From Candidatus Jettenia sp. AMX2 (GTDB lineage Bacteria; Planctomycetota; Brocadiia; Brocadiales; Brocadiaceae): a DNA stretch of 64,000 nucleotides. Positions 41,186-51,488 of the stretch are shown piece by piece. The first letter of the stretch is position 1; each line of letters begins with the position of its first letter. A program made the position numbers and the translations under genes. The stretch lies in contig CP129469.1 in NCBI GenBank assembly GCA_030583665.1, positions 1,975,043 to 2,039,042 of the forward strand, given 5' to 3'. The notes beneath the pieces are model-generated. The model had not been told where the DNA came from. It saw nothing but the letters and a program-made list of their open reading frames with translations, and searched no databases.

Positions 41186-41674
41186 TTATTCTTTATTATC
41201 TATCTTGATTTTAACATTTTCGTCTGTATATGCTTTGATTTCATAACCCATGGGTATCTCACCTTCTTCTCCTTTTATTAAAAAACCAACAGGAGCTAAT
41301 GGAAGGCAAAACAAACCACCTATTGCACCCGCGGCAATTGCACCTCCGGCCCGTCCGCATCCCTCCCGGTTTGTGTAGCTGATAAAAATATTTCAGTATC
41401 GTCTACTGCTGTTGTCAAACTGACTACAACGGAAATTTCTCCCTTACCGCCCCAGCCTCTGGCTTTCTTTACATCAGCAACTTTTGCATTGGCAGGAGTA
41501 TTTGCTTCGATTACTATATATGCCATCAACTTTAACAGGTCTTATGACTTTCATTCCTATAATATCCCCAACGCTTGAATCTTTACCTGTTACTTTTTGA
41601 GTTGTTGCCAATAATATTGGTGTACTTGCTTTTAGCGTTACTTCTTTTGTTTCTGCAAAAAGAAAACGATACAT
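41186..41674 (-). pseudogene. Putative secreted protein with glycine-rich segment, two frameshifts
   Basis: Three frames read in order give one protein: KEVTLKASTPILLATTQKVT to VKVDG, then YIVIEANTPANAKVADVKKA through ISVVVSLTTAVDDTEIFLSA, then GCGRAGGAIAAGAIGGLFCL and IPMGYEIKAYTDENVKIKID. The breaks are near 41520 and 41365. The pattern of beta strands, a Gly-rich hydrophobic segment and a terminal YEIKAYTDENV resembles a family of secreted proteins of unknown function. The N-terminal signal region is not recognisable. It is probably inactive. Confidence 0.65.
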
Positions 41675-42449: not shown

Positions 42450-42990
42450 TTATTTTTTTTGTATATCACTATCAATTTCTATTTCCAAATTTTTTGCAAT
42501 GGCTTGCCCGCCACGACTAGAGATTGTTAGATGCGCCGAGCGGGTTTCGCCACCTTCGTACATGACGATATTCTTATGTTCAGGTAATCGCCACATTTTT
42601 ACTTGGCGAGTAGCAATGATAATAGCCTTATCTGCCATCGCTTTTCGAATTACTACATCTACAACGTAATTCCGCATTGCTTTTACTGAAGGAAGTTTGT
42701 TGAGCAAAGAACCAGTGCCAAACGATTTTGAATGATAAGGCATTAATTCCAGACAAACCAATCTCTTTGAAAGTGTGCTCATCGCCTTTTGGTAACTAAC
42801 TTTGGATTGTATGATGTAAATTTATATCTGAAACACCAAATTCTGGGCTGGCTACATATTCATCGAATGAGCGATAGGTTTTTGAATCTGAAAATCCTGA
42901 TAGATGTTTTTCGTCATCTGGGAACAAATAAGGCGGAGACTCTAAATTGCACTTGCGCCAACCTTCAATCAGATTGTGATGTTTGCTCAT
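42450..42990 (-). pseudogene. Unidentified protein, internally deleted and frameshifted
   Basis: The first part (from ATG at 42990) reads KHHNLIEGWRKCNLESPPYL and SFDEYVASPEFGVSDINLH, ending at a stop near 42796. The second part reads SYQKAMSTLSKRLVCLELMP, then YHSKSFGTGSLLNKLPSVKA and YEGGETRSAHLTISSRGGQA in another frame to 42450. The two look like the ends of one protein, with the middle lost. I do not know its function. It lies just downstream of the NERD-helicase gene in the same direction. Confidence 0.55.
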
Positions 42991-43032: not shown

Positions 43033-44928
43033 TCATCCATTCTGTATCGGGCGAATACTTTTTATATATCTTATAAGAAATCCTAAGGGTGAGTCAGACG
43101 GTAAATTATTACAATAGTCTGCATTTCCTACAATATAAAGAGTATTTCTTGCTCTTGTAACTGCAACGTTTACCAGAAAAGGAACTTTTTCGTTAATCCA
43201 CCTGGCTTTAAAAGGTGGGCTATTATCGCTAACCACCAGACTAAGAATCACAATGTCTTTCTCATCTCCCTGGAATTTATGAACTGGGTCCGCTTTGAGT
43301 CTCATTGTTAGATCGACTGGTAATTTGGCCTGAATAACTCTGTTAATTTCCTTCGCCTGATCTGCAAATGGGGTTGTAATTCCGATTGATATTCCATTGT
43401 GTTGTATGGCAAGTTTACGAGCTAAATTAACTGCTTTTTGTATTTCTGTTAGATTTATGTTTTGTTGTGGGTGTTGATTTCCAACAGTATTAATCCAATA
43501 AATCCCTTTCGGTTCAATCTGATAAAAGTCAGTCGGTGTGCAGATGTCAAGTTCTTGCCCCATTATGGGCCCATAAAATATCTTGTTGGAATATGTAATA
43601 ATTTCCGGATGGCATCTGAAGTGTTCTTTCAGGTAAATACTCCGGCATTTTGATACAATCGATAAATTATAACAGTAATCAAACAGGGATTCATTTACGT
43701 AATCTAAACAAAGGTTGGTATCTATACCCAGTGTTCTGATGATATATTTTTCTTCATAAGATTGAACATTCGAAATGTGTTTTAATTGCATCGGGTCGCC
43801 GATTACTACAAGTTGTTTTGCTCTGAGAATTAAAGGCAAAGCCGATGCAATATCGCATTGTGATGCCTCATCAATTACCACTATGTCAAATAGTTTTTCA
43901 GTTAAAGGAAAGGCATTCTTAATGGAAAGGCTTGTAATTGCAGTTATGTTAAAAGTTTCAAGAAAATCCTTTGTCGTTTCAACAAAACCATGTATTTGTG
44001 ACATTTCTGGAATATAATCAGGTATGTAACCTTTAAACCTGTTTAATACTGCTGCATCTTCCTCACGAATTTTTTTATGGACTAACTCCTTGAGTAATGG
44101 AAGTCCACAATCTTTAAGGCTTTCTTCATTCGTAATTATTGTGTTTTTTAATCCATTTTCATTTGCCCTTATGTTCTCAATCTCATTTTGGTCTTCGGTA
44201 AATTGAGATCTTAATTCTTGAATTTCTTTCTCACAGTTAATCTTTTTTCCTATTAATTGTATTCCGAATTCAATAAATGTAAGAAGTTTTTCGTAAATAG
44301 ATAGTATAGTGCTGCCGTCTGTTAAATCAGTTGATTTGACTTCTATACCTAGTTCCCTTGCTAATTTTTTTAATTCATACGGCCATGATTCAAAGGTAGA
44401 AACCAGACTGGCAGCATATTTCTTCTTTTCTGTAAAGTTAAAATAGTATCTACCCAAACCATAACAACTATTATACTTCGAAGCTACTTCGTTTTTGCAT
44501 GAAATGATCCTATTTCTGATTTCGGACAGTTTTTCTCTTTGATTATTGAATACATTTACAGCTTCGCTATTTGAATCAATCCATCTTTGCAATCTTTGTT
44601 CCTTATCCTCAATTGTTGATTCCAGAACTGGCAATTCATTTTCAAGCTTCTTTTTCCTTTCCAGCATTTCATGTGAATTTACTATTATGCGCCTTCTGTT
44701 GCCAACTTCATCAAGAATTTGTGACAACCTTTCCGAATTATCTTCAATCAAATTGTTGTGAATTTTTGTTATATAGGAATTAATAATAGGTTTTGTTCTA
44801 TTTCGTATTTCCTCCCTCGAACCAAATCGCAAAAAGAATTTGTAAGAAATATGGTTAGGTTCATTTATTAAAGCAGCGAGCTTTTCCTTTACAGTATCTA
44901 TTGCTCTATTATTTTTGCTTGCTACCAA
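43033..44928 (-). CDS. UPF1-like SF1 helicase, C-terminal part of a split gene
   Basis: This 631-residue part begins where the gene at 44936-46435 stops. After VASKNNRAIDTVKEKLAALI (helicase motif Ia region) comes a long coiled-coil insertion (about 60-300). The helicase core follows: DIVVIDEASQCDIASALPLI (motif II, near 346), LVVIGDPMQLKHI (motif III, near 375), HKFQGDEKDIVILSL (near 553) and VNVAVTRARNTLYIVGN (motif VI, near 589). Walker A is in the upstream frame, so this part alone should not hydrolyse ATP. The only starts are weak (TTG at 44928). One extra base near 44934-44937 separates the two parts. Confidence 0.85.
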   Translation of the reverse strand: MVASKNNRAIDTVKEKLAALINEPNHISYKFFLRFGSREEIRNRTKPIINSYITKIHNNLIEDNSERLSQILDEVGNRRRIIVNSHEMLERKKKLENELPVLESTIEDKEQRLQRWIDSNSEAVNVFNNQREKLSEIRNRIISCKNEVASKYNSCYGLGRYYFNFTEKKKYAASLVSTFESWPYELKKLARELGIEVKSTDLTDGSTILSIYEKLLTFIEFGIQLIGKKINCEKEIQELRSQFTEDQNEIENIRANENGLKNTIITNEESLKDCGLPLLKELVHKKIREEDAAVLNRFKGYIPDYIPEMSQIHGFVETTKDFLETFNITAITSLSIKNAFPLTEKLFDIVVIDEASQCDIASALPLILRAKQLVVIGDPMQLKHISNVQSYEEKYIIRTLGIDTNLCLDYVNESLFDYCYNLSIVSKCRSIYLKEHFRCHPEIITYSNKIFYGPIMGQELDICTPTDFYQIEPKGIYWINTVGNQHPQQNINLTEIQKAVNLARKLAIQHNGISIGITTPFADQAKEINRVIQAKLPVDLTMRLKADPVHKFQGDEKDIVILSLVVSDNSPPFKARWINEKVPFLVNVAVTRARNTLYIVGNADYCNNLPSDSPLGFLIRYIKSIRPIQNG

Positions 44929-44935
44929 TACCTTC

Positions 44936-46435
44936 TTAATTATGGATAATTGCGTTAGCTAAAATGTTTAGAACAACCTGCGTCTTTCCAGTTCCTGGAG
45001 GGCCTGTTATAACAGTCAAAGGTTGATTGAATGAATATCTAACAGCATCCTTCTGGCAGGTGTTCAGAGGGGTAATCTGAATGAATTCAGATGCGTCAAT
45101 CTGCTGAATTTCATTATTGATAGCTTTCTTGAGGAGAAATTTTTCTAAAAAGCTATCTTCTAAAACGAGTCCGTTCCGATCGATTTTTTTAAGTTCAGAT
45201 AATAGTTGACTTGTAAACGGATTCTCTTCGATAAATGCCAAAGTGATATTACTAACCAGAATAACTGTATTGCCTAAATAATTTTCAAGGATATGAACCT
45301 TTTCTGTTAGCGTATTTTCCTGGTTTACTGCTGACGTAAGTTCCTCAATCAAGTCATCAGGGTAATTGCGGTCTTCCAGCGGTTTCGGATAAAGAGTGAA
45401 ATTCTTAATGGGTAATTCAATGGCAGTGTGATCTAAGATATCTCCGTGAGGAATAATCTTGTAAAGTAATGGAAATGTCTGTTCATTGAAACAAATATTT
45501 ATTCCTGCAAAAAGGTTTTTTGGGGATTGTCGATTCAAATTTTGCTGAAACCGTTGATGAAACGCTGGATTGTTTTCAAGGTTTATTGTGATTGGATCGG
45601 CAACAGCCTGCCAATTAATATGGAAAAGATGCATATCTTGAACGTCAGGTTCTTTTTGCCTTTCAAGATTTATAAGTGTTTGGTAATAAATAATTAGCTT
45701 TTTTATCTCATTGGTTTCATTAATTCCCGGGATATTTTCCAATATCCTTTTTACTAATTCTAATCTCTCTGCCGCATTTGGAATATTTTCTGTTGCCGGA
45801 ATTACCACAGGCTCTTGTGTTTCATCATAAATATTTTCTTCCCTGATACCAAAGACATTGAGAATATTCTGTATTTCTGTATCTGATAAATTCAGTGCAT
45901 TGCTGTATCTGTCATTAATTACTGACAGACAGTTAGTATTATCAGAAATATCAAAATACACACTGATCCTTTGAGGGATTTCATTCATGTCAAATGAAAC
46001 ACGCTGATGAAACAGAACTAATGCGCTCAAATGTCCCAATTTAAAATTCTCATGGTTTGGCTCTAACACATTAGAAAGTTTGCTGCCTAAGAAATTAATA
46101 AGCGAATACCGGTAAGCCTGTACCTGTTGGTACGGATTTCTGATCTTTCCGCCGCCCTGCACAAAAACAAAATCATTTCCCGTATGTATTTGCCAGGGAT
46201 TGTTTTCCGAAAATGTTAACTGACCACCATAGTTTTTAAAATCAATGACAATGATTCTCCCGCTCGAAATAAACAGGGCATCTATCTGATGTCCATTACA
46301 ACTCACATTTCCAACCAAAACATGGAGTCCTTCATTATTTTGAAATGTACTGCGAAGTCGTCCTGAAAACTCTCTGAAAAATGAATTTTCAAAAGTATGT
46401 TCATAATGTTTTATAAGGTAAGATTTATACGCCAT
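44936..46435 (-). CDS. NERD nuclease domain plus helicase Walker A, N-terminal part of a split gene
   Basis: The 499-residue part has an N-terminal NERD domain (about 20-130): GHQIDALFISSGRIIVIDFK, with the Asp and the D-x-K of a PD-(D/E)xK-like nuclease, and later GGKIRNPYQQVQAYRYSL. A middle region of unknown type leads to NTCQKDAVRYSFNQPLTVIT and the Walker A motif GPPGTGKT (about 478-485), then LANAIIHN and a stop. Removing one T after the AAT of the last Asn codon fuses it in frame to KKVLVASKNN of the next part. Joined, the protein would have about 1,130 residues. Such nuclease-helicase fusions occur in DNA repair and anti-phage defence. Confidence 0.85.
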   Translation of the reverse strand: MAYKSYLIKHYEHTFENSFFREFSGRLRSTFQNNEGLHVLVGNVSCNGHQIDALFISSGRIIVIDFKNYGGQLTFSENNPWQIHTGNDFVFVQGGGKIRNPYQQVQAYRYSLINFLGSKLSNVLEPNHENFKLGHLSALVLFHQRVSFDMNEIPQRISVYFDISDNTNCLSVINDRYSNALNLSDTEIQNILNVFGIREENIYDETQEPVVIPATENIPNAAERLELVKRILENIPGINETNEIKKLIIYYQTLINLERQKEPDVQDMHLFHINWQAVADPITINLENNPAFHQRFQQNLNRQSPKNLFAGINICFNEQTFPLLYKIIPHGDILDHTAIELPIKNFTLYPKPLEDRNYPDDLIEELTSAVNQENTLTEKVHILENYLGNTVILVSNITLAFIEENPFTSQLLSELKKIDRNGLVLEDSFLEKFLLKKAINNEIQQIDASEFIQITPLNTCQKDAVRYSFNQPLTVITGPPGTGKTQVVLNILANAIIHN

Positions 46436-46677: not shown

Positions 46678-47114
46678 TTATAGTTCTGTTGTACTAATAG
46701 CTGCTGCACGTTGTTCAAACTCCGCAGCATCTTTTCCCCGCTGAGTCGCCCGATACAATAGGGCCAAATTAGTAAGACAATTGGCAACATCAGGATGGTC
46801 CGGGCCGAGAGATTTTTCAAAGATCGCTAATGCACGCTTAAAGAGCGGTTCGGCCTGTGCATATTTATCTTGGGCCTTGTAGAGCGATGCAAGGTTGTTC
46901 AGGCTTGTGGCTACATCAGGATGTCCGGGCCGACTTTTTTTTCTGCTACCTCCAGCGCTCTCTTTGCCACCACTACTGCATGGTCGTACTGTCCCTTCTG
47001 AGAAAATTCCTCGCTGAGGGTATCCCACAAGATGCAAGCCCCTTGCTTAAATAACACAAACTTGGCCAGAAGTATAAAGACCACTACAACGGATAGGACT
47101 TTGATTACCTTCAT
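46678..47114 (-). pseudogene. TPR repeat protein with N-terminal anchor, one frameshift
   Basis: The first frame (ATG at 47114) reads MKVIKVLSVVVVFILLAKFV, a membrane anchor or signal, then YDHAVVVAKRALEVAEKKVG. The second frame continues HPDVATSLNNLASLYKAQDK, YAQAEPLFKRALAIFEKSLG and HPDVANCLTNLALLYRATQR, kinesin-light-chain-type TPRs. The break is near 46925, where one C appears lost from GGCCCGGA(C)CATCC. The gaps 46436-46677 and 47115-47336 hold no gene. Confidence 0.75.
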
Positions 47115-47336
47115 TGTGGTTCCCTTCCTTTCCTGTACGGCTAACAAGTTCTTTTATGGTATTTCATTTAACCGGCATTCTGCTTTAGTACCTATGGCCA
47201 TACTGTGGATGTCCGCACTTTAATTTCATCTAAAAAATATTCTCTATCAGAACAATTATCGGTTAGTGTTTAAATAAATTTAGACGTAAATTCTACAAAT
47301 GATTTTCGCATAGTGAAAATCGGCCTTTTATAATAC

Positions 47337-47358
47337 GAGGCGGCGGGAATTGAACCCG
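47337..47358 (+). other. Distal attachment-site copy (22-bp duplicate of tmRNA 3' end)
   Basis: These 22 bases are identical and in the same orientation as 51138-51159, the T-arm and acceptor end of ssrA. Integrases that use the 3' end of tmRNA rebuild the gene and leave such a fragment at the far end of the element. The repeat therefore marks the left boundary of a 3.8-kb island. Confidence 0.75.
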
Positions 47359-47715
47359 TCACACATTTTATTAAGTATTTAATTAATAATATCTTATAAC
47401 TTTCACCTCCCCTAAAAGACCGTCACCAAACCGTAACCAGAATCACTTTTCCATGGTGTAGAAATATTCGATAGAAACCTGCCCGAAACATTCCAGTTGA
47501 TTCATTATCGACGGTAACCATAATTTAGTTGCATCCTTTTCTTTCTTGTGTTATTTTAAGATGATGAGTAAAGCTGAAAAACTATTGAAACGTTTCTTGT
47601 CGAAACCAAAAGATTTTACCTACCTTGAGCTTAAGAAGCTCCTGGCCGGTTTTAGATATGAGAATATCAGCACAGGCAAAACAGCAGGATCAAGGGTTAC
47701 TTTTATGAATCCTAA

Positions 47716-49799
47716 CCTCACTTCGACAAATGTATTACAAAAAAGGTGAAAAACGGGTAAAAAGTGAGGGATGAAAAGTCATAAGTTGTTGATATGGTTA
47801 GCCTGAAGATTTTAGAGTGGCCAATGTAGTGCCTGAATATATATCTATCTGTTGTTTTTAAGATTTTTTCTGGTATAATGTATGGCATGTATGTCCGTAA
47901 AAAATCAAAAAAGACGTCAGGCAAAAAACGATATCTACAGCACCAACTCGTTGAGTCGGTTCGTACCCCTTCAGGGCCAAGGCAGCAAATAGTTTTGAAT
48001 CTTGGCCAGCTTGATCTGCCGGAAGAGAAGTGGAAGGTTCTTGCAGACCGCATCGAAGGGATTTTAACCAATCAAAAGACCTTATTTCCGTTAGATCCTG
48101 AAATCGAGGCAAAGGCAAGGCATTATGCCCGTCAGATAAGGCAAGAGAGATTGGGACGTGGGCAAGAATGTCTTACCGCTGAAGAAACAGCGCACTATGA
48201 GCAGGTAGATATTAGTTCCCTGGCAACAAATGATGCGAAGACCGTAGGGGCAGAACACGTAGTAATAAGCCAGATGGATGAATATGGGTTTGACACGATA
48301 GTAAAGGGACTTGGATTGAGCGAAGAGCAGGTGAAGTATTCCAGGATGGTTATTGTGGGAAGAATAGTACATCCTGGCAGCGAGCGGGAGACTGCCCGAT
48401 GGTTAACAGAGGCAAGCGGAGTGGGAGAACTCCTGGGTGGAGGGGTGAGGGTGTATGATAATGCGTTACATCGGGCGGCCATATTGTTATGGGAGCATCA
48501 TGAAGCGATAGAACGGGAGTTGTCAAGACGTGCCCGGGAGATATATTCTCTCAAGGAGACGGTGATCTTGTACGATTTAACCAACAGTTATTTTGAGGGG
48601 AGCAAGAGAGGGAGTAAAATAGCCAGGTATGGTAAATCAAAGGAGAAGCGTAATGACTGTCCGATAATTACGTTATCTCTTACGGTAGATGAAGAAGGAT
48701 TTCCTAAACAGAGCAAGGTATGGGAAGGCAACGTGTCTGAGCCTGATACGTTGAAAGATATTTTATCAGGTTTGAAAAAAGAAGGCGGTCTGTTTACGGA
48801 TGAGAAGACTATCGTAATAGATGCCGGAATTGCGACGGAAGACAATATCGCATTGATAAAAAAAAATGGATTTCGCTATGTGGCGGTCTCCCGTAAGAGA
48901 ACGTATGAAGACGCTTTTTGGTCAAAAGCAGAGGAGGAGAAGATCCCTTTATCGGACGGGAAGACAACGTTGAGCCTGAAATTCGTGCGAACAGAAGAAG
49001 AGGCATACCTTCTCTGCCACAGTGAAACAAAAGAGGCAAAAGAAAAAGCCATGCTTTTCCAGAAAGAACAAAGGTTTGAACAGGAACTGTTGTCAATACG
49101 GGAAGGGTTATCAAAGGCAAAAAGACAAAGAAAGTATGATAAGATCATTGAACGAATCGGGCGACTGAAAGAACGTTATAACGTAGGCAATCTGTATAAG
49201 ATCAAAGTGGAACAGTCTGAAGGCAATGCGACCTTGCTTCACTTTACAAAAAATGAGCAGGCGAAGGCGAAGGAAGATGCAGCCGGCACCTATGTGTTGA
49301 GGACAAATCGTCTGGATCTTGGTGGGGAAGAGATATCAAAGCTCCACAGATCGTTGACCACGATAGAGGCGAGCTTTGCAAGTATGAAAGGCAATCTGGG
49401 TTTACGGCCAAACTTTCACCATGCGGATACCCCCACCATTGCCCATGTACACGTAACGGTATTGGCCTATCATATACTTGCCGGGATAATAAAAAAGTTG
49501 CGGACAGCAGGGATTCATTACGATTGTGATACGATTCGTAATATCCTTGCAACACACGTAAGGGTGACAACCACGATGAATACAGAAGATGGTCATGTTA
49601 TTGACGTCAGAACCTGCACAACGCCAACGGAAAAGCAGCATATGATTTACCATAAACTCCAGATAAAGCACACGCCATTAGGGAGAAAATACATAAAAAC
49701 ACCTGTTAAAACGCAAAGATGTAGTGCCGAAAAATGAAGCGTCAAAATCTTAACATATTGTTGCTTCAGAAGATGTGATTTTCACTTGTCGAACTATGG
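47716..49799 (+). mobile_element. IS1634-family-like insertion sequence, 2,084 bp
   Basis: The ends are imperfect inverted repeats: CCTCACTTCGACAA on the left (47716-47729) and CCATAGTTCGACAA on the right when reversed (49786-49799), 11 of 14 positions alike. The element is flanked by CTAA at 47712-47715 and 49800-49803, a 4-base target duplication. It contains one transposase gene. The boundaries are confirmed because excision restores hicA. Confidence 0.88.
47887..49737 (+). CDS. IS1634/IS4-type DDE transposase
   Basis: The product of about 616 residues has the family's hallmarks: VILYDLTNSYFEG (first catalytic Asp), IVIDAGIATEDNIALI (second Asp) and the late LHRSLTTIEASFASMKGNLG with the Glu and the following Lys of the YREK-like motif, before an HHADTPTIAHVHVTVLAYHI region. 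A possible promoter (TTGTTT 47852-47857; extended TGGTATAAT 47871-47879) lies so close that the message may be nearly leaderless from the ATG at 47887. An ATG at 47878 overlaps the -10 box. The frame is intact, so the element may be active. Confidence 0.93.
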   Translation: MYVRKKSKKTSGKKRYLQHQLVESVRTPSGPRQQIVLNLGQLDLPEEKWKVLADRIEGILTNQKTLFPLDPEIEAKARHYARQIRQERLGRGQECLTAEETAHYEQVDISSLATNDAKTVGAEHVVISQMDEYGFDTIVKGLGLSEEQVKYSRMVIVGRIVHPGSERETARWLTEASGVGELLGGGVRVYDNALHRAAILLWEHHEAIERELSRRAREIYSLKETVILYDLTNSYFEGSKRGSKIARYGKSKEKRNDCPIITLSLTVDEEGFPKQSKVWEGNVSEPDTLKDILSGLKKEGGLFTDEKTIVIDAGIATEDNIALIKKNGFRYVAVSRKRTYEDAFWSKAEEEKIPLSDGKTTLSLKFVRTEEEAYLLCHSETKEAKEKAMLFQKEQRFEQELLSIREGLSKAKRQRKYDKIIERIGRLKERYNVGNLYKIKVEQSEGNATLLHFTKNEQAKAKEDAAGTYVLRTNRLDLGGEEISKLHRSLTTIEASFASMKGNLGLRPNFHHADTPTIAHVHVTVLAYHILAGIIKKLRTAGIHYDCDTIRNILATHVRVTTTMNTEDGHVIDVRTCTTPTEKQHMIYHKLQIKHTPLGRKYIKTPVKTQRCSAEK

Positions 49800-49908
49800 C
49801 TAAGACTAAACACATTATTAAACTTCATAAGCCACATCCAAAGCCTGAACTAAAGCGGTATCAGTTGGACTATATAGAGGAAACACTGCGAAATAATGAG
49901 GTGATACA

Positions 49909-50702: not shown

Positions 50703-50814
50703 TTCACTCCTCCTTATTCATTTTATGCCTCATCATGAATGAGTCTTGCAATATTCTTAACAAATTTTCTTTAATTTGACAAATCGTACTTTTAACAACT
50801 TCAATTTTTGTAAT

Positions 50815-50953
50815 AATTTAGTTTTTTGAAAAAGTAGGGGCGGAGCATTTGCTATAGATTGGTATAATGCGTTTATATCCAAACCGGTAAATGCTTCGCC
50901 CCTATACTGTGCGGTAAACATCGCTATTATTGGCATTTTTCAAAAAACTAAAT
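50815..50953. mobile_element. MITE-like palindromic element
   Basis: AATTTAGTTTTTTGAAAAA (50815-50833) is an exact reverse complement of 50935-50953. Inside, GGGGCGGAGCATTTGC (from 50837) and AAATGCTTCGCCCC (to 50911) form a second inverted pair with one mismatch. There is no coding capacity. The right end resembles 39887-39912. The rest of the gap 50394-51135 shows only the toxin remnant. Confidence 0.55.
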
Positions 50954-51135
50954 TGTTGCCAATTTTTTTATTTGTTGCTGCTTAATTAGGTATGGCCACC
51001 TGAATATGGTATGCTGATGTGAGGTATTTTATCCCTTTATTTTTACAAAGTGTAAACGGCATTCCGGGAATACATTGAGGTCGGTTTTTTAGGGGGATTA
51101 ATACGCTAAGTATTTGATATGTTTTAAGTTATAAA

Positions 51136-51488
51136 TGGAGGCGGCGGGAATTGAACCCGCGTCCCAGGACATTTCAGCACAGGCTTCTACGTACATAGTC
51201 TATTTTTAAATCTCACTCGCAGGAACTCCAACAGACAGGATTTCCCGTAGCCAGCCCCGTTTAAAAGTTCGTTTAATTCCCACCGGGCGGAGGAATTATA
51301 CTAACCTGCTAGTCGTCATTTCATTAACCACGCAGGTAAGGTTAATAAAATGTGGCTGTTTAATTAAGCAGCCAATGCCATTGGTCTTTCGGCATTTAAA
51401 TTGTTTTGCCAGGTTTTTAATGAGGCCGCCTGACAACCTCAATACGCCACCTATACCTCAACTTGTCCGGTCGAATCCTTTCGCCCCC
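51136..51488 (-). ncRNA. ssrA: Transfer-messenger RNA (tmRNA)
   Basis: The 5' end GGGGGCGAAAGGATTCGACC and the 3' end with T arm GCGGGTTCAATTCCCGC and acceptor CGCCTCC-A pair as the tRNA-like domain. CCA is not encoded. The tag frame on the minus strand (51364-51405) ends GCA TTG GCT GCT TAA, giving NNLNAERPMALAA; the exact resume codon is uncertain. tmRNA rescues stalled ribosomes together with SmpB. The 3' end is duplicated at 47337-47358, marking it as an integration site. Confidence 0.97.
51138..51159 (+). other. Proximal attachment-site copy within ssrA
   Basis: This is the ssrA-embedded copy of the 22-bp direct repeat also present at 47337-47358. Together the two define an island of about 3.8 kb downstream of ssrA. 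Confidence 0.75.

What the first reader, a model, noticed from the sequence alone, without database searches (positions are those of the whole stretch)
43033..46435. NERD nuclease-UPF1-like helicase split by a single extra T: possible defence gene or recoding site
Walker A ends the first frame and motifs Ia to VI fill the second, with a long coiled-coil insertion between. Removing one T at 44934-44937 (AATTAAGAAG) rejoins them. Nuclease-helicase fusions of this type occur in anti-phage systems. The neighbourhood also has toxin-antitoxin genes and, 14 kb away, a methyltransferase. The split could be an inactivating mutation, phase variation, an error or programmed frameshifting.
Basis: partly seen in the sequence, partly recalled or inferred. 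Interest (0 to 1): 0.6.

Follow-up and report, generated by a model that had tools for sequence, protein, structure and literature searches.

The report
Broken anti-phage nuclease-helicase gene
A nuclease-helicase gene of a kind that sits in bacterial virus-defence clusters, probably acquired from Bacteroidota, has been broken by a one-base frameshift in this anammox-like bacterium, among other decayed genes, so it is an ordinary case of defence-gene loss from a poorly described helicase family rather than a recoding site.

Summary
On the minus strand an ORF of 499 aa (46435-44936: NERD nuclease plus Walker A) is followed, one frame over, by an ORF of about 633 codons (44934-43033: motif Ia to VI, with a ~340-residue helical insertion). 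All nine intact relatives that carry the NERD domain are single ORFs of 1101-1121 aa that run straight through the split. So the split is a frameshift in this genome, not the family's design. Programmed recoding and phase variation are not supported: no repeat tract, no conserved slip site. Sequencing error is unlikely: about 43 kb of the rest of the window shows no frameshift against a same-genus genome, whereas the 6 kb around this gene holds three other broken genes, including a Brig1/UDG-like glycosylase remnant directly downstream. The defence reading is supported by context: intact relatives sit next to Zorya II, an ABC-3C-like pair or a type II R-M system. The methyltransferase 14 kb away is syntenic in a relative, not part of the island. 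By profile the helicase is closest to Mokosh MkoA/MkoC, but the Mokosh kinase and PLD nuclease are absent. Best reading: a recently inactivated, horizontally acquired, unnamed Mokosh-like NERD-helicase defence gene.

The parts
44936..46435 (-). 5' part of the gene (ORF1, 499 aa): NERD nuclease domain (QID at 50, VIDFK at 63), linker region, helicase Walker A; ends at the frameshift stop
44930..44940 (-). single-nucleotide frameshift site (AATTAAGAAG); all relatives are in frame across it
43033..44934 (-). 3' part of the gene (ORF2): motif Ia, ~340-residue helical insertion, Walker B, motifs III to VI of the UPF1-like SF1 helicase
42796..42990 (-). N-terminal remnant of a UDG/Brig1-like glycosylase-family gene directly downstream
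   Evidence: weak match to a full-length Variovorax relative
42450..42782 (-). C-terminal remnant of the same UDG/Brig1-like gene; its middle, including the conserved core, is missing
41260..41674 (-). frameshifted remnant of a hypothetical gene whose continuation runs through all three frames
   Evidence: read by eye
46678..47147 (-). frameshifted TPR gene; its paralogue at G000:C1:1766444-1766962 is in one frame

Best explanation
This is a pseudogene, probably recent, of a single-gene NERD nuclease plus UPF1-like SF1 helicase defence factor that entered an anammox-like planctomycete horizontally, most likely from Bacteroidota. Inferred mechanism of the intact protein: the SF1B helicase, carrying a long helical insertion, engages and translocates on invader nucleic acid and so acts as the sensor; this releases or directs the N-terminal PD-(D/E)XK (NERD) nuclease to cut it, as in other sensor-helicase plus effector-nuclease systems such as Hachiman. 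In this genome the frameshift falls just after Walker A, so only a NERD fragment with a partial P-loop domain can be made, and the defence function is lost. Shown: domain make-up, frameshift, fused relatives, foreign composition, decay of neighbours, defence-gene context of relatives. Inferred: direction of transfer, biochemical activity, target, and that the T insertion is a real mutation.
For: Sixteen relatives continuous through the site, and all nine NERD-bearing intact relatives are 1101-1121 aa. Top relatives are Bacteroidota at 63-54% identity over ORF2, with no orthologue in 58 Brocadiales relatives. GC is 32-37% against 40-46% for most of the window. Both catalytic motif sets are intact, with no stop in either half. 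Three other broken genes lie within 6 kb, against no frameshift in window ORFs over 43.4 kb compared with G001. The lesion is not in a homopolymer, although seven A6-A7 runs in the gene are intact. Seven of 164 otherwise invariant columns are violated, against 0-3 of ~157-160 in each intact close relative. Defence neighbours: ZorA/ZorB/ZorE and an Hhe/PDC-S37-like helicase-REase, HNH-CTD11 plus DUF2326, PDC-M68AB, type II REase and MTase. The family is rare and patchy: 2 of 396 and 2 of 395 genomes with full-length hits, counting the seed genomes.
Against: No reads were available, so an assembly error at this one base remains possible. The defence function of this exact family has not been tested. 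Neighbourhood evidence rests on few loci, several relatives sit on short contigs, and in L095 most visible neighbours are not defence genes. Donor direction is inferred from similarity and composition only; no tree was built.
Confidence: 0.75

Rival explanations
1. Assembly or sequencing error: the gene is intact in the living strain and works as a defence gene.
For: Only one lesion in 3.4 kb and all motifs kept; no reads seen.
Against: No frameshift in ~43 kb of other coding DNA compared with G001; the site is a 2-nt T run, not a homopolymer, while A6-A7 runs in the gene are intact; neighbouring genes are also broken, one by loss of its middle; slight excess of changes at invariant residues.
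Confidence: 0.15
2. Programmed +1 frameshifting: one full-length protein is made by recoding at AAT-TAA.
For: A stop codon directly at the shift and both frames open and conserved.
Against: All relatives encode the protein in one frame, so there is nothing ancestral to recode; no Shine-Dalgarno-like stimulator is visible in the 30 nt upstream; a P-site AAT to ATT slip is poor for the tRNA pairing (general knowledge).
Confidence: 0.03
3. Phase variation: reversible on/off switching at the site.
For: Defence genes elsewhere can be phase-variable (general knowledge).
Against: No repeat or homopolymer tract at the lesion; the A6-A7 runs are elsewhere in the gene and in frame; no repeat pair at the site was found, the gene's only reported repeat being a 16-nt chance-like match at 45556.
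Confidence: 0.02
4. A two-protein system: the halves are translated separately and act together.
For: Both halves open and conserved.
Against: The break cuts the first RecA-like domain between Walker A and motif Ia; ORF2 has no well-placed start (TTG with a 2-nt spacer from AAGAAGG; the first ATG is ~260 nt downstream); no NERD-bearing relative is split.
Confidence: 0.04

Closest known systems
Mokosh MkoA (type I) / MkoC (type II)
   Same: COG1112/UPF1-like SF1 helicase; profile matches at about 1e-50 to 1e-62 over the helicase part; one MkoA profile (PDLC03921, 1607 positions) contains a region matching a NERD domain; NERD is listed for Mokosh type I in PMC10952713
   Different: No kinase domain, no PLD nuclease partner or fusion found; about 1120 aa against 1607
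PADLOC candidate PDC-M16A
   Same: N-terminal ~190 residues (NERD region) match at 1e-46 to 1e-50
   Different: The remaining ~700 positions of the PDC-M16A profile do not match; the helicase part is of another kind
Hachiman HamAB / Nhi
   Same: Nuclease effector joined to a helicase sensor (works-like comparison; PMC12278908)
   Different: Different helicase family (HamB is Ski2-like SF2 per PMC12839542) and nuclease; no full-length homology found
Dna2 and IGHMBP2/UPF1 (eukaryotic)
   Same: SF1B UPF1-like helicase; Dna2 also couples a PD-(D/E)XK nuclease to it (general knowledge); profile hits to UPF1 at 5e-35 and Dna2 at 2e-20
   Different: Housekeeping enzymes; no NERD domain, no long helical insertion of this kind (general knowledge)
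Brig1 anti-phage DNA glycosylase (downstream remnant)
   Same: Weak profile match (E 0.0064 for the remnant, 0.00044 for its Rhizobium relative)
   Different: Far below the family cut-off (16-20 against 230 bits); the gene here lacks its middle

Membership tests
Mokosh type I | COG1112/UPF1-like SF1 helicase | tested here: met
   Pfam AAA_11/AAA_12 and MkoA/MkoC profile matches in L022-L033
Mokosh type I | serine/threonine kinase domain | tested here: not met
   no kinase family in the Pfam scan of L022; kinase as a defining feature is from PMC11672841
Mokosh type I | separate PLD nuclease gene (MkoB) next door | tested here: not met
   no such ORF in 41-47 kb of the window; scanned neighbours in L093, L094, L095 give no MkoB/PLD match
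Mokosh type II (MkoC) | PLD nuclease fused at the C-terminus | tested here: not met
   matches to MkoC end at ~964 of 1136; no PLD match in Pfam
PDC-M16A | match over the full profile | tested here: not met
   only positions 1-190 (up to ~243) of 892-917
NERD domain nuclease | Pfam NERD above the curated cut-off with the PD-(D/E)XK-like residues kept | tested here: met
   40.1 bits against 22.1; invariant D52, D65, K67 in the alignment
Anti-phage defence gene | recurrent position in defence islands | tested here: met
   three intact loci next to Zorya II, ABC-3C-like or R-M genes; small sample
Anti-phage defence gene | protection against phage | not testable with these tools
   needs plaque assays
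Programmed frameshift gene | split and slip site conserved in relatives | tested here: not met
   all relatives in one frame
Brig1 | score above the NF047634 cut-off | tested here: not met
   16 bits against 230

The most novel reading that the evidence does not exclude
The intact NERD-UPF1-like helicase (about 1120 aa, long helical insertion, no PLD or kinase) is a stand-alone one-gene anti-phage system not yet named, a compact relative of Mokosh; the window holds an inactivated copy once paired with a Brig1-like glycosylase.
Probability: 0.45. Interest if true: 0.5.

Novelty: new variant of a known kind. Interest (0 to 1): 0.3.

Why it matters
The window copy shows defence-gene loss in an anammox-like bacterium, a group whose phage defence is little studied. 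The intact relatives point to a compact Mokosh-like nuclease-helicase that could be tested as a one-gene defence system and would help separate the roles of nuclease and helicase in Mokosh-like immunity.

Tried and rejected
Programmed frameshifting, phase variation and a true two-gene system. Mokosh and PDC-M16 membership. Linkage to the D12 methyltransferase, which lies among topA, ribF and tatC genes and is conserved in place in a relative. tmRNA as the integration site of the NERD island: the att-like repeat brackets 47.33-51.13 kb, outside the gene, with no third copy in the genome at up to 2 mismatches. Viral contigs: no relative found. Phage and plasmid records: only distant helicase matches. 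Structure prediction of L022 was of middling quality (mean pLDDT 62.7, pTM 0.33) and the fold search gave only low-TM matches, mostly to UPF1/IGHMBP2/Aquarius-type helicases. Literature searches found no paper naming this exact NERD plus UPF1-like architecture as a system, within an incomplete library.

Full report
OBSERVATION. On the minus strand, 46435-44936 encodes 499 aa with a NERD domain and a helicase Walker A motif, and 44934-43033 continues in the next frame with motif Ia to VI. The break is at AATTAAGAAG, just after Walker A. Neither half has an internal stop.

FUSED RELATIVES. A search of prokaryote genomes with the second half returned 30 loci; the closest four are Bacteroidota MAGs, 63-54% identical. 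Sixteen relatives examined at the site, including archaeal and Lachnospiraceae cousins without NERD, are continuous in one ORF. The NERD-bearing group (L022-L025, L030, L031, L033, plus L094 and L095 found later) is uniform at 1101-1121 aa. So the ancestral form is a single protein and the split is specific to this genome.

NATURE OF THE SPLIT. The lesion is not in a homopolymer or a tandem repeat, while seven A6-A7 runs elsewhere in the gene are undisturbed. No recoding signal was seen and none is needed in relatives. To judge error, ORFs of the same-genus genome G001 were compared with the window in both directions: 62 window ORFs, 43.4 kb, no frameshift in the window ORFs; one flag in the opposite direction is a 181-aa G001 ORF on the plus strand over minus-strand genes, probably a spurious antisense ORF. 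These totals count overlapping ORFs, so the distinct sequence compared is somewhat less than 43 kb. By contrast the 6 kb around the gene contains a frameshifted TPR gene with an in-frame paralogue elsewhere, a multiply frameshifted hypothetical gene, and a glycosylase-family gene missing its middle. A local cluster of decay fits real pseudogenes better than random error. The window copy also breaks 7 of 164 columns invariant in the other relatives, against 0-3 for each close intact relative, which is weak support for relaxed constraint. All catalytic motifs remain, so the loss looks recent.

FOREIGN ORIGIN. GC in 41-47.5 kb is 32-39% (mostly 32-37%) against 40-46% for most of the window, and third-position GC is 0.28-0.32 against 0.36-0.41 in host genes. 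Transfer from Bacteroidota is the simplest reading; no tree was built.

FUNCTION OF THE FAMILY. The helicase half matches UPF1 (5e-35), SEN1, IGHMBP2 and Dna2 among solved structures, and MkoA/MkoC, PDC-S37 and Hhe among defence profiles. The first ~200 residues match PDC-M16A. Intact copies lie beside a Zorya II set (ZorA, ZorB, ZorE) with a helicase-REase protein (L094), beside an HNH-CTD11 plus DUF2326 pair (L093), and beside a type II REase and cytosine MTase (L023). A NERD-only cousin, L097, lies beside DISARM DrmA/DrmB. The family is rare and patchy: two full-length hits in each of two samples of about 395 genomes, seed genomes included. This pattern supports defence. The mechanism, helicase sensing followed by NERD cleavage, is inferred from domain order and from analogous systems (Hachiman, PMC12278908).

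THE DOWNSTREAM GENE. 42990-42450 holds the two ends of a protein whose full-length relatives are 244-260 aa. The N-terminal piece matches only weakly. The Rhizobium relative has a weak match to Brig1 (4.4e-4), an anti-phage DNA glycosylase of the uracil-DNA glycosylase superfamily (PMC11078745). If so, the island once carried two DNA-directed defence genes and both are now broken. The Brig1 link is suggestive only, since the scores are far below the family cut-off.

WHAT IS NOT PART OF IT. HicB (Pfam) and a HicA-like ORF (named by position and by eye; no Pfam hit) at 47.5-50.3 kb are split by an IS1634 element; the uninterrupted arrangement is seen in G001. A 25-31 bp repeat of the tmRNA 3' end at 47328 and 51129 also brackets a 9-kb element with a tyrosine-integrase-like gene in G020, so 47.33-51.13 kb is probably the remnant of a tmRNA-integrated element. 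The NERD gene lies outside it. The D12 methyltransferase is conserved in place in G012.

VERDICT. Observation confirmed; defence reading supported for the family, inactive here; recoding and phase variation not supported. New variant of a known kind (Mokosh-like NERD-helicase), interest modest because this copy is a pseudogene.

Noticed in passing
47328-47358 and 51129-51159: tmRNA 3'-end repeat bracketing 3.8 kb; in G020 (L070) the same repeat flanks a 9-kb element with a tyrosine-integrase-like gene next to tmRNA, so tmRNA looks like an integration site in this family.
   Followed up: partly
47708-49803: IS1634-family element inserted in a HicAB toxin-antitoxin pair; the uninterrupted arrangement is present in G001 (L064 ~10850).
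   Followed up: yes
50803-50974: About 156-bp MITE-like element with 27-bp inverted ends; several copies in this genome and many in related genomes.
   Followed up: no
41260-41674 (-): Hypothetical gene broken by several frameshifts, next to the core PPIase gene.
   Followed up: no
L094:3181-8055: A 1624-aa UPF1-like helicase with an MTES_1575 REase and a C-terminal GreA/GreB domain, encoded between ZorE and the NERD-helicase gene; the GreA/GreB domain on a defence helicase looks unusual.
   Followed up: no
L095:9560-9850, L028:8336-9001, L027:3037-3360: Small genes directly downstream of related helicases; L095 is a WYL-domain protein by Pfam and the other two look similar by eye, a possible recurrent partner.
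   Followed up: partly
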